Positions 6,595 to 58,370 of a stretch of DNA of 64,000 nt are shown piece after piece. The translations under genes were made by a program, and so were the position numbers. Source of the DNA: Echinarachnius parma (taxonomy: Eukaryota > Echinodermata > Echinoidea > Clypeasteroida > Echinarachniidae); contig JBAMJV010007428.1 of NCBI GenBank assembly GCA_037951105.1, positions 46,466 to 110,465 of the forward strand, given 5' to 3'. Below the pieces are notes generated by a model. That model did not search any database, was not told the DNA's origin, and saw only the letters and a program-made list of their open reading frames with translations. The first letter of the stretch is position 1, and the number at the start of each line of letters is the position of its first letter.

Positions 6595-9500
6595 TTCTGG
6601 AGTTTTTGCCGGCCCTGCATAGTAGACGGGGTGGTCCTTCATGTACTGTGGCAACCCTTCCCCTGCGTCCAACCTCTCCTGCAGCTTGGCATGGGCTATG
6701 TCTCTGGCGACAACAAGCGTGCCTGTTGAAACAAAGATAATTTGGACATTAACAAAAAATTGTCTCATAATTCTTCAGTAGAAATGTTAGAATATAGTAT
6801 TGTAGATTTTTAAAAAGAAAGAAATTCATATTATTCTCCTATCACAGGAGGCTTGCGGCAGCACTACGGTATGTATTTATTTATTTATTCAGTCTTGTTT
6901 AAACAGGCTGACGGTGATGATGATGATGATGATGATGATGATGATGATGATGATGATGAGGAGGAAGAGGATAGAATTATTGATGATAATGATGGTGACA
7001 ATAAAGGAGAAGATAATGATGTTTTTGATTTTGAGGTCAATGCTGGCTCACCTGAAAGGCTCACTCGCGTGCGTATCGGGTGTTGGGTCAGCGTGGCTAG
7101 CATCTCACTCATCGGTCGGTTCAGGTCGACCTTGATGACCTCACCACTCAAGTTGTCCTCTTCTATCTCTGGCAAGTACTTGATAGGGTTGGTTTCTAGC
7201 TGCTCCAGGAACACTCCCTCTGACGTGATCTTACCTAGAGCCTTAGGAATAAGGAAGGAAAAAAATAGCTATCAATCCTTGGAACAATTTTTTTGATATC
7301 ACTCAATGGTCGATTAAGGTCGACCTTGATGACATCGTTCAAGTTGCCATCTGGCAAGTACTTGATAGGGTTGGTCTCTAGCTGCTCCAGGAACACTCCC
7401 TCCGCTGTGATCTTGCCTAGAGCCTTAGGAGTTAGGCAGGAAGAACAAAAATTGCTATCAAGCCTTGAACTTCCATTCTTCTTATATCACTCATCAATTG
7501 ATTCAGGTCGACCTTGATGAACTCTACACTCGAGTCGTCCTCTTCTATCTCTGGCAAGTACTTGACAGGGTTGGTTTCTAGCTGCTCCAGGAACACTCCC
7601 TCCTCTGTGATCTTGCCTAGAGCCTTAGGAGTAAGGAAGGAAGAAAAATAGCTATCAATCCTTGGAACTGTCATTCTTCTGATATCACCCATCAATTGAT
7701 TCAGAACAATCTTGTCTCTTGATAACCTCTCCACTCAAGTCGTCCTCTTCTATCAATATTTGGGGCTTTTGTTATTCTGATATCACTCAAGGGTCGATTC
7801 AGGTTAACCTTGATGACCTCACCACTCAAGTCGTCCTCTTCTATCTCTGGCAAGTACTTGACAGGGTTGGTCTCTAGCTGCTCCAGGAACACTCCCTCCT
7901 CTGTGATCTTACCTAGAGCCTAAGGAAGCCAGACAAAATAGCTATCAATTCTTGGAACTTTTGTTATTCTAATCCACTCAAGGGTCGATTCAGGAAGACC
8001 TTGATGACTTCTACACTCATGTCCCCCTCTTCAATCTCTGGCAAGTACTTGACAGGGTTGGTCTCTAGCTGCTCCAGGAACACTCCCTCTGATGTGATCT
8101 TACCTAGAGCCTATCAAAAGAAGATGCATAGTTTCTATTTCTTACTTGTCAATGAGCTGTTCAAGAAACTCGCATTCTGACTGGGAGAAAATGACCTATA
8201 ATGGTTTATTACAAAAGTAATTATTTCAAAGATAATGTTAAAAATGTGTAAAAAAGCATGTCAAGTGTTGCTCATTTCTTACCAGAACAGCTAACACTCA
8301 GATGTCCCATTCAGGGAAGTTTAAAACAGCAATAAGGGATATTATAGTTATGACATACATGCACCACTATGGGGGGAAATTACTTTAATCTGGGCAATTT
8401 TCGATTTTTGTTTGTAAGGATGTGGAAAGATCTCTGCATTTTCAGGGAGTGCTGACGTAGATCTGTGGCAAATCCTTTTGTTCATAGATGGAGGGTGGGG
8501 ATACTTGAATAGATCATCGCCCTGAATAAACTTAACCATTCAAAGATCTACGTCGGTGTCAGGGAACCTGCAGCAGAACCAGGGTAAATTGGCAGATCCA
8601 TCTTACTTGTCTGTCAGCTGAACAAGAGACACATATTCCCAAGGAGCAGGATTCACCACTATATGGAAAATGTCCTTAATCATGAAGATATTCAAATTGT
8701 TTGTCAGGATGTGGAAAATCTGTGCATTTTCAGGGAACTTCCAGCAGAATTAGGGAGTCTTTGCAGCTCCGTCTTACCTGTCTGTCGGCTGAACAAGAGA
8801 CTCCTATTCCTACGGGGCAGGACGCGCCATGCCTTGGAAGACGAACGACTCGAACATCGTGGCAGAAGTACTTCCCTCCGAACTGAGCCCCGATGCCAAG
8901 CTGCTGTGACAGTTTGTGGATCTGCTCTTCTAGCGCTACGTCCCTGAAAGCTCTGCCATGTTCATTGCCTGTATCACAAGAAAACCAAAGAAAAGCAAGT
9001 AAATGAAAAATACCAATGATTTGGCTCAAATAGGGCATGTGCATTATTCTTCATTTAGGGTACCCTAGCTTACTTGAGAAGCATTATGTGCTTCTGATAG
9101 GCGCAACACATTTCATTGATATTGTATTTGATTTTTCTATAATAAACATTTATATAATATTGACTGGCCTTGAGTGGTATATCAGAAATATTGCATTCGC
9201 TAGGATCATATTGCACGAGTCGAAGACGAGTGCAATATGATCATAGCGAATGCAATATTTCTGATATATCACGAAAGAACAAGCCAGTCAATATTATTAT
9301 TATTATACATACTATCCAGAGCAAAACATAAATAAACAAAAACATACATCTTACTCCGTCTTGTTCAGTGAAGAAGACCAATGCATTGAATCTCAAATTA
9401 CGGATTAAACATTTTTAACCCATGAAGGGCCATTTGCGCGTACTGTAGCAGAGGTGCGTAAACGTATTCATATGTCACAATTAGATACGCGCAAAGCCAT

Positions 9501-57129: not shown

Positions 57130-58370
57130 TTTGTTTAAAAGGGTACTAAATGTTTGGGCAGAATAATACGAGTAAAGGAAAAACTCGCAAACGATGCGAT
57201 ATTTTTGTAAACAGTGATGTTCCAGATATTGGGGAGATACGGAGCGAAGACCTTGAAGTTGGCAAAGTCTCCGAACCAGATCTCGTCCATCCTATCGAAG
57301 GGAAAATAAGATTGTTTTGTTTTAAAGGGTAGATCTTTGGGACAAACATGTAATATAAATATAACAAAAACTCGGAAATATTTCGGTAACAGTGATGTTC
57401 CAGATATTGGGTAGATACGGAGCAAAGACCTTGGCGAACTCACCGAACCAGATCTCGTCCATCCTATCGAAGGGAAAATAAGATTGTTCTGCAGGGTAAA
57501 TGTTTGGGCAGAATAATACGAGTAAAGGAAAAACTCGCAAACGATGCGATATTTGAGTAAACAGTGATGTTCCAGATATTGGGGAGATACGGAGCGAAGA
57601 CCTTGAAGTTGGCAAAGTCTCCGAACCAGATCTCGTCCATCCTATCGAAGGGAAAATAAGATTGTTTTGTTTTAAAGGGTAGATCTTTGGGACATATATG
57701 TAATATAAATATAACAAAAACTCGGAAATATTTCGGTAACAGTGATGTTCCAAATATTGGGGAAATACGAGGCAAAGACCTTGCAGTTGGCAAACTCTCC
57801 GAACCAGATCTCGTCCATCCTATCGAAGGAAAAATATGATTGTTTTTTTTTAAGGGTAAATGTTTGGGCAGAATAATACGAGTAAAGGAAAAACTCGCAA
57901 ACGATGCGATATTTTAGTTACAGTGACAGAGCGAAGACCTTGGCGTACTCTCTGAACCAGATCTCACACATCGTATCCTTTTTTAAGGGATCAATGTTTA
58001 GGATAGAATAATACGAAAATGTGGTCAATTTCAAAATTCTCTTTTTTTAGAAGAATGAGTGTTTGCAACAGAAAAAGTAAATAAAGGAAAATTCGCAAAC
58101 AATAAGTGAGATATCAGATGTTAGTCAAGTACGGATGAAACAGAACCTTGGTAAATTCTTCATTGTCGTCCATAAAATTGTAAATGTTTGGGACAACAGT
58201 GAATATAATTTTGGACAAAGGTGAATATAAATAAAGCAAAAACTCGAAACGATGAGAAGTTTTCATAATTGGTAAAAGTGGTTTTAAACGATGTTGGCCA
58301 GGTATATAGGGGTCAACCAGAACCATTGCGAATGTAGCGAACGCAATCCTGTCCATTCTGAAAAAGGGAA
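57130..58370 (-). repeat. About seven copies of zinc finger exon 1 head, each with ATG and 3' splice site
   Basis: Units of 172-186 bp repeat the intron end, acceptor (TTCGATAG/G) and exon head MDEIWFGDFANFKVFAPYLP. Exon starts are 57291, 57463, 57641 and 57819, with degraded ones near 57974, 58170 and 58357. Two variants alternate (with or without the NF insertion after GDFA), giving a ~360-bp higher-order dimer. Each copy ends after NIWNIT and runs on as intron. None carries the CxxC half of the exon. Confidence 0.88.

What the first reader, a model, noticed from the sequence alone, without database searches (positions are those of the whole stretch)
6595..58370. Recurrent tandem microduplications that cross splice sites, in three genes on both strands
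About half of the recognised coding exons have extra diverged tandem copies of a 60-200 bp piece spanning one splice site. Head type (intron end + 3' splice site + exon start): fumarase start exon (7 extra), exon 5 (3), exon 8 (5); bmb exon 3 (1), exon 9 (9), exon 12 (3); zinc finger exon 1 (~7), exon 2 (3-4). Tail type (exon end + 5' splice site + intron start): fumarase exon 7; bmb exons 5, 6, 8, 11; zinc finger exon 2. The Harbinger transposase exon shows the same. No copy has both splice sites, so they are not ordinary exon duplications. Copies differ in age, so the process is ongoing. A bias to splice junctions suggests either a mechanism acting there or selection for spare splice sites.
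Basis: partly seen in the sequence, partly recalled or inferred. Interest (0 to 1): 0.88.

Follow-up and report, generated by a model that had tools for sequence, protein, structure and literature searches.

The report
Sea urchin splice-site tandem repeats
In this sea urchin genome many exons carry, in the neighbouring intron, extra decaying tandem copies of a roughly 175-base piece that spans one splice site; probable allelic copies differ in number, and eight chaperonin genes outside the window show the same pattern more often than random placement predicts.

Summary
The window is echinoid: fumarase (class I, minus strand), brambleberry (plus), an RTP-like 3CxxC gene (minus). Of 44 splice sites, 12 are spanned by a local tandem copy, one more marginally; 13 of 16 tandem clusters in these genes contain a splice site (4.6 expected). 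On two other contigs, probably the other haplotype, spanning-copy counts differ at 11 of 15 arrays, so simple assembly error is unlikely. In eight chaperonin genes fetched without looking at repeats, 22 of 42 clusters span a splice site (9.05 expected) and 6 more place exon pieces in an intron; none holds a whole exon. Units average 175 bp. Splice-site arrays are not older than intronic ones, which points to more frequent birth rather than longer retention. Changes private to extra copies look nearly neutral, so most are probably inert decoys; AG/GT is kept better than its neighbours. The kind is known: "mirages" of amphioxus genes (PMC3087553, PMC3902484). New, within my searches, are an echinoderm case, a frequency (16-20% of splice sites in eight genes), a blind enrichment test and haplotype differences across many arrays. 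Mechanism unproven; nucleosome-scale duplication anchored at exons fits best.

The parts
7102..8113 (-). Head array of fumarase exon 8 (functional exon 7052-7241; acceptor at 7241/7242); 4 extra copies plus a fragment; period about 191
   Evidence: by the stricter count, 3 spanning copies here and 1 on contig C6283
8559..8829 (-). Tail array of fumarase exon 7 (exon 8778-8968; donor at 8778); 1 extra copy, offset 171; a further intronic piece at 8359-8448
   Evidence: not found on C6283
10400..11259 (-). Head array of fumarase exon 5 (exon 10303-10509); 3 extra copies, period about 221
   Evidence: C6283 has 2
14269..15322 (-). Array at the fumarase start exon (coding part 14154-14301); 6 extra copies, period about 156; splice site in the unit only presumed
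   Evidence: C6283 has 3
24340..24705 (+). Head pair of brambleberry exon 3 (exon 24549-24734); 1 extra copy, offset 206
   Evidence: C6283 equal
27210..28144 (+). Tail pair of brambleberry exon 5 (exon 27193-27309); 1 extra copy 794 bp on
   Evidence: C6283 equal
28444..29249 (+). Tail array of brambleberry exon 6 (exon 28370-28549); 2 extra copies plus a fragment, period about 184
   Evidence: C6283 has 1
29955..30219 (+). Tail pair of brambleberry exon 8 (exon 29879-29984); 1 extra copy of about 68 bp, separated by an ATAG microsatellite
   Evidence: not found on C6283
31342..32351 (+). Head array of brambleberry exon 9 (exon 32291-32429); 9 extra copies, period 102 bp = 34 codons, one stop codon in the 9 extra units
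   Evidence: C6283 has 3
34471..34898 (+). Tail array of brambleberry exon 11 (exon 34326-34565); 2 extra copies, period about 140
   Evidence: C6283 has 1
35330..36067 (+). Head array of brambleberry exon 12 (coding part from 35992 to about 36148); 3 extra copies, period about 203
   Evidence: C6283 equal
55338..55704 (-). Tail pair of RTP-like exon 2 (exon 55621-55824); 1 extra copy, offset 190
   Evidence: contig C5221 has 3
55710..56529 (-). Head array of RTP-like exon 2; 2 spanning copies plus 1 exonic by the count, period about 210
   Evidence: C5221 has 1 spanning plus 1 exonic
57025..57977 (-). Head array of RTP-like exon 1 (exon 56961-57105); 4 full copies plus fragments, period about 178 with a 350 bp higher-order period
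   Evidence: C5221 equal, 5 and 5 with a 52 bp piece counted

Best explanation
These are mirages: recurrent DNA-level tandem duplications of a segment of about 175 bp (SD 41) with one end inside an exon and the other in the flanking intron. SHOWN: copies span one splice site; a complete exon sits at the exon edge of the array and the modelled genes read as intact proteins; spanning-copy counts differ between probable haplotypes; the excess at splice sites recurs in a set of eight other genes, and splice-site arrays are not older than intronic ones. INFERRED: the excess is mainly a higher birth rate at exon edges, not positive selection; extra copies are inert decoys that decay almost neutrally, since a dead acceptor or donor inside an intron leaves the mRNA unchanged as long as the edge copy is used; arrays then grow and shrink by unequal exchange or slippage, with new units drawn at times from the functional exon. 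MORE SPECULATIVE: the unit is nucleosome-sized and its exonic end tends to lie near the exon middle, as if breakpoints fell near the dyads of an exon-positioned nucleosome and its intronic neighbour, for instance in Okazaki fragment maturation.
For: Structure. Cluster excess in the window: 13 of 16, 4.59 expected. Aligned intron parts of window copies are as similar to the functional copy as exon parts (87% and 86%), so deep-intronic duplications of the same age should also have been seen. Age: splice-site and intron-only arrays have equal identity; among clusters with at least 85% identity 9 of 20 span a site, 3.41 expected, P=0.003. Density: units of 140-300 bp, 19 exon-associated and 6 intron-only in 92.7 kb of genes; 2 in 51.9 kb of six arbitrarily chosen stretches. 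Unit size 175 +- 41 bp, exonic part 81 +- 31, intronic part 94 +- 36, n=31. Probable haplotypes C6283 and C5221: 11 of 15 arrays differ. Near-neutral private changes in extra copies of eight arrays, 39/31/48 by codon position, third positions 48 of 118, P=0.10.
Against: AG/GT is kept in 33 of 35 extra copies, 26.5 expected (P=0.004); 68 of 70 dinucleotide bases are kept against 86% of neighbours (P=0.002): not purely neutral, though 9 of the 35 are related copies of one array. Extra-extra differences are third-position-rich (18.4% against 8.8 and 9.2%), which needs the added assumption that units descend from the functional slot at different times; shared changes, 21 of 38 at third positions (P=0.006), fit it, but shared and private changes do not differ significantly from each other (P=0.13). 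Three of the eight genes show no clear excess: HSP60 3 against 2.64, CCT3 1 against 0.84, CCT5 1 against 1.03. Among clusters of 90% identity or more 4 of 10 span a site, 1.89 expected, P=0.10. The central position of breakpoints is only weakly non-uniform (P=0.02 and 0.05, approximate). No chromatin or replication data tie the unit to nucleosomes. No RNA was seen, so correct splicing is inferred from reading frames.
Confidence: 0.55

Rival explanations
1. Selection keeps spare splice sites: extra acceptors or donors raise splicing fidelity or give useful isoforms.
For: AG/GT kept in 33 of 35 copies, better than neighbours; 10 of 27 decoy acceptors and 7 of 8 decoy donors score at or above the lower quartile of real sites; the bmb exon 9 array is 34 codons per unit with one stop in nine extra units.
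Against: Private changes in extra copies are close to even over codon positions; 10 of 37 copies have a frameshift in the exon part; splice-site arrays are not older than intronic ones; counts differ between probable haplotypes at 11 of 15 arrays, in three cases none against one or two.
Confidence: 0.12
2. No bias at all: tandem duplications arise everywhere, wholly exonic and whole-exon ones are removed by selection, and splice-site ones look common because the constrained exon makes them detectable for longer.
For: Position coverage is not enriched in the window; with a 3x detection weight the strict blind count is P=0.15; six clusters are seen only through their exon part.
Against: Aligned exon and intron parts are equally similar; ages equal; excess holds among clusters of 85% identity or more (9 of 20 against 3.41, P=0.003); 140-300 bp units are about seven times denser in these genes than in the arbitrary stretches (25 in 92.7 kb against 2 in 51.9 kb).
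Confidence: 0.2
3. A recombination or replication hot spot set by base composition or chromatin of exons in general, not by splice sites; splice-site arrays are the survivors because exon-internal duplications are purged.
For: Breakpoints lie at varied distances from the splice site, so nothing marks the junction itself; clusters with both copies inside exons: 0 of 42.
Against: Nothing found here separates it from the best explanation; it is its weaker form, without the nucleosome step.
Confidence: 0.35
4. Assembly artefact: haplotypes or read errors stacked into false tandem copies.
For: The assembly is fragmented (14,790 contigs, 1.2 Gb) and seems to hold both haplotypes; the BflGb6 array of amphioxus was mis-assembled in a draft (text on additional file 4 in PMC3087553).
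Against: Copies differ from the functional copy by about 14%, more than the 3-7% seen between the two contigs over much of the region; both contigs carry arrays at the same exons with different counts; frames intact.
Confidence: 0.04

Closest known systems
[quoted passage not shown] globins BflGb6 and BflGb9; PGBD5; troponin C)
   Same: Copies span one boundary; both 5' and 3' boundaries occur; many copies keep AG/GT; haplotypes differ in copy number (BflGb6 6 and 3); units of 150-160 bp in BflGb6 with 81-100% identity (passages of PMC3087553; of PMC3902484).
   Different: Different phylum; 16-20% of splice sites in eight sampled genes here instead of single reports; splice-site excess tested against placement; somatic instability and normal splicing, reported for amphioxus, not tested here.
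Intron gain by tandem genomic duplication of exonic AGGT segments
   Same: Tandem duplication that involves splice-site sequence; extra copies could seed new introns (passages of PMC3443670).
   Different: There the duplicated segment is exonic and creates a new intron; here each unit joins intron and exon, and I saw no new intron in the genes modelled.
Ordinary tandem exon duplication
   Same: Exon sequence in tandem copies.
   Different: No detected cluster has both splice sites of an exon.
Short-unit intronic minisatellites
   Same: Tandem arrays in introns.
   Different: Clusters with units below 140 bp are mostly intron-only (8 of 12); with 140 bp or more, exon-associated in 24 of 30 (cut chosen after seeing the data).

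Membership tests
Mirage (amphioxus) | Tandem copies span an exon-intron boundary | tested here: met
   12 of 44 sites in the window, 22 of 42 clusters in 8 other genes
Mirage (amphioxus) | Both 3' and 5' boundaries can be duplicated | tested here: met
   blind genes: 15 acceptors and 7 donors, counted from the list
Mirage (amphioxus) | Many but not all copies keep AG/GT | tested here: met
   33 of 35
Mirage (amphioxus) | Haplotypes differ in copy number | tested here: met
   11 of 15 arrays; that the contigs are alleles is inferred, for C6283 from similarity and gene order, for C5221 from its matching exons 1 and 2
Mirage (amphioxus) | Somatic length instability | not testable with these tools
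   needs DNA from several tissues
Mirage (amphioxus) | Does not disturb regular splicing | not testable with these tools
   no RNA data; open frames of fumarase and brambleberry on both contigs only
Exon duplication | Copy carries both splice sites | tested here: not met
   0 of 42 clusters cover a whole exon; 0 of 16 in the window
Intron gain by exonic AGGT duplication | Duplicated segment lies inside an exon | tested here: not met
   0 of 42 clusters with both copies exonic

The most novel reading that the evidence does not exclude
Deuterostome invertebrates with large, variable genomes (at least echinoids and cephalochordates) share a mutational process that duplicates nucleosome-sized segments anchored at exons, much more often than elsewhere in introns, and so keeps a standing pool of polymorphic decoy splice sites from which new introns and isoforms can arise.
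Probability: 0.35. Interest if true: 0.8.

Novelty: new member of a known kind. Interest (0 to 1): 0.6.

Why it matters
If exon edges are a duplication hot spot, splice-site turnover and intron gain have a steady and measurable mutational source, and a sea urchin genome with both haplotypes apparently assembled becomes a direct test bed. The decoys are also a natural experiment in how the spliceosome picks one of up to ten similar sites. For practice, gene predictors can read such copies as exons: a predicted Branchiostoma belcheri fumarase isoform carries three extra units of 15-16 residues where the sea urchin's exon 4 ends, which reads like such an array.

Tried and rejected
Rejected: amphioxus as the source organism (my first guess from the literature); fumarase is 91% Diadema, 90% Lytechinus, 89% Strongylocentrotus and 81% or less in the Branchiostoma entries of the 120 hits listed. 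Rejected as a statistic: share of positions covered, because copies fill introns. Tried without result: literature on such arrays in echinoderms (searches; the other papers were seen as listings only, so of what I read only the two amphioxus papers describe the thing); the original Adh paper PMC117041 is not held. Not resolved: whether units of the Harbinger-like array contain splice sites. A link of breakpoints to nucleosomes is only suggested; the search for nucleosome-scale duplication listed nothing on exon edges, listings only.

Filters and dropped rows: self-hits needed offset 25-1000 bp, length 35 or more, trinucleotide entropy 4.2 or more, E up to 1e-3. In the eight blind genes 77 of 92 predicted exons were kept (identity to template 45% or more, no stop); only junctions between two kept exons were counted, and only clusters between the outermost kept exons. 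The allele CCT5b (C6105) was left out of the pooled counts. Of the 15 contigs with PF00118 matches, 9 were fetched (eight genes and one allele); all fetched genes were counted. and later used copies scoring 34 or more and left out the fumarase start exon, so fewer than listed. One search counted spanning copies by a stricter rule than (fumarase exon 8: 3 instead of 4), so haplotype counts depend on the rule. The 31 unit sizes were entered by hand; bmb exon 5 and the three blind arrays with period above 300 were left out, and bmb exon 8 was entered as 65 bp without its microsatellite. The cut at 140 bp was chosen after seeing the data. The six 'random' stretches were picked by arbitrary contig numbers; one was short (1,908 bases).
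Full report
WHAT THE WINDOW IS. The fumarase-like gene on the minus strand is class I fumarase; its joined exons are 91% identical to Diadema antillarum, 90% to Lytechinus variegatus and 89% to Strongylocentrotus purpuratus. 'bmb' is brambleberry, 73% to Diadema setosum. 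The zinc-finger gene is an RTP-like 3CxxC protein. So the window is from an echinoid, probably none of the genera named among the hits, and not from amphioxus. It is contig C7417:46466-110465 of a 1.2 Gb assembly in 14,790 contigs.

GENE MODELS. A spliced protein-to-DNA alignment that I wrote gave fumarase exons 1-9 in the window (exons 10 and 11 follow beyond its left end), brambleberry exons 1-12 without a stop, and RTP exons 1-3. RTP exon 3 was extended by eye to the stop of its open frame. This gives 44 splice sites: 22 acceptors and 22 donors.

THE ARRAYS. In head arrays the complete exon is the last unit, in tail arrays the first; the extra units lie in the intron. 12 of 44 sites are spanned with 10 bp on each side; bmb exon 3 shares only about 3 bp of intron in the BLAST hit but 22 of 28 aligned bases. 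The fumarase start exon may carry a 5'-UTR acceptor, unproven.

CHANCE. Coverage of positions is not enriched (12 of 44 against a mean of 14 on circular shifts, P=0.80). That test is blunt, because every extra copy adds covered intron. Counting clusters, 13 of 16 contain a splice site; random placement of units of the same length, excluding wholly exonic and two-site placements, gives 4.59 (P=1.4e-5), 7.05 with double detection weight (P=0.0023) and 8.61 with triple weight (P=0.02).

BLIND REPLICATION. The window was picked because of its arrays, so I fetched chaperonin genes by family search without looking at repeats. In eight genes with 136 usable splice sites there are 42 tandem clusters: 22 span a site (9.05 expected, P=6.1e-6), 6 more place a piece of exon in the intron, 14 are intron-only, none contains a whole exon or lies wholly in exons. 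With double weight P=0.011 for the strict count and 1.1e-5 with the six; with triple weight 0.15 and 0.0014; with fivefold weight 0.71 and 0.081. Gene by gene the strict count exceeds expectation clearly in five (CCT1 4 against 0.94, CCT2 4 against 0.83, CCT6 2 against 0.96, CCT7 3 against 0.76, CCT8 4 against 1.06) and not clearly in three (HSP60 3 against 2.64, CCT3 1 against 0.84, CCT5 1 against 1.03). About 16% (22 for 136) of splice sites in these genes carry a detectable array, about 20% with the six.

IS IT DETECTION BIAS? A constrained exon slows decay and lengthens detectability. Four results bear on this. In the window the aligned intron parts of the copies are as similar to the functional copy (87%) as the exon parts (86%); only aligned parts count. 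Splice-site and intron-only clusters have the same identity (median 83.9 and 85.9, P=0.54); longer retention or detection would make the former older. Among clusters of 85% identity or more 9 of 20 span a site, 3.41 expected (P=0.003); at 90% or more 4 of 10, 1.89 expected (P=0.10). Six arbitrary stretches (51.9 kb) hold two clusters with units of 140-300 bp, against 25 in 92.7 kb of genes, 19 of them exon-associated; the background of two is a small number.

PROBABLE HAPLOTYPES. Contig C6283 matches the fumarase-brambleberry region in the same order, at 93-97% over much of its length and less in the arrays; the PF05683 search hit these two contigs only. It is probably the other haplotype. Fumarase and brambleberry read as complete proteins on both. 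Spanning copies, window against C6283: fumarase start exon 6/3, exon 5 3/2, exon 7 1/0, exon 8 3/1; bmb exon 6 2/1, exon 7 0/2, exon 8 1/0, exon 9 9/3, exon 11 2/1; equal at bmb exons 3, 5, 12. For RTP, contig C5221, whose exons 1 and 2 encode the same residues (its exon 3 was not found in the stretch fetched): exon 1 5/5, exon 2 acceptor 2/1, exon 2 donor 1/3. So 11 of 15 differ. The counts depend on the alignment threshold. In bmb exon 8 the window's extra unit is flanked by an ATAG microsatellite absent from C6283.

A RELATIVE WITHOUT THE ARRAY. An ENA protein from an unnamed organism (P0286) reads through RTP exon 1, then about 125 codons that must be intron, into one out-of-frame copy of exon 2 (comparison by eye). 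There the intron seems short and exon 2 single, whereas the window's intron is 1,136 bp and holds the extra copies.

STATE OF THE COPIES. AG or GT is kept in 33 of 35 covered copies, 26.5 expected (P=0.004); 68 of 70 dinucleotide bases are kept against 86% of neighbours (P=0.002). Ten of 37 copies have a frameshift in the exon part. In the eight arrays with two or more extra copies, changes private to one extra copy are 39/31/48 over codon positions 1-3 (third-position share P=0.10), changes shared among copies 8/9/21 (P=0.006); the two sets do not differ significantly (P=0.13). Pairwise, extra copies differ twice as often at third positions. I read this as units born from the functional exon at different times, then decaying freely; the numbers are small and copies are related. 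Ten of 27 decoy acceptors and 7 of 8 decoy donors score at or above the lower quartile of real sites, against 2.3% of 1,390 intronic AGs (the matrix was built from these same real sites, and the intronic AGs include the decoys).

UNIT SIZE AND POSITION. For 31 arrays (12 of the window, 19 blind, periods below 300 bp) the unit is 175 +- 41 bp, exonic part 81 +- 31, intronic part 94 +- 36; the exonic end lies on average at half the exon (0.51 +- 0.17), weakly non-uniform (P=0.02). In the blind genes units of 140 bp or more are exon-associated in 24 of 30 clusters, shorter ones in 4 of 12 (the cut was made after seeing the data). This is why I propose a nucleosome-scale process; it is inference.

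WHAT IS KNOWN. Tandem repeats over exon-intron boundaries were described in amphioxus Adh3 as 'mirages' and then in globin, PGBD5 and troponin C genes (passages read in PMC3087553, and PMC3902484; the original Adh paper was not available). The globin paper reports both boundary types, 150-160 bp units in BflGb6, haplotypes with 6 and 3 copies, and proposes them as a source of new introns. A predicted fumarase isoform of Branchiostoma belcheri carries three extra units of 15-16 residues where the sea urchin's exon 4 ends, which looks like a tail mirage in the same gene read as exon. In the listings and passages of my searches I did not see this reported for an echinoderm or measured genome-wide; many journals are not in the library.

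VERDICT. Best supported is a higher birth rate of nucleosome-sized tandem duplications at exon edges with nearly neutral fate.

Noticed in passing
window 380-4700: Tandem array of a Harbinger-like transposase exon (DDE_Tnp_4 match) with units of about 400-600 bp; whether units contain splice sites was not resolved.
   Followed up: partly
window 15596-18851 (+): Non-LTR retrotransposon with endonuclease and reverse transcriptase matches in the 16088-18331 frame.
   Followed up: no
window 44531-48645 (-): Two related stretches about 2.4 kb apart at 67% identity, one with a reverse transcriptase match (RVT_1), next to long CA repeats.
   Followed up: no
window 36460-37337 and 38430-38992; also C6283 about 41.3-42.0 kb and near the end of L015: A dispersed element with an internal tandem unit of about 147 bp (the L015 case judged by eye from its translation).
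   Followed up: partly
window 31342-32351: The bmb exon 9 array is 34 codons per unit with one stop in nine extra units, so use of an upstream acceptor would add multiples of 34 residues in frame.
   Followed up: partly
protein P0020 (Branchiostoma belcheri fumarase isoform X1): Three extra units like VRLYNTYTQNLRYSQ, probably an amphioxus mirage annotated as coding.
   Followed up: partly
C6283, about 60.0-60.7 kb (brambleberry intron 7): An 87 bp-period array, up to 98.9% identical, ends 9 bp before the exon 8 acceptor; no such cluster was found in the window.
   Followed up: no
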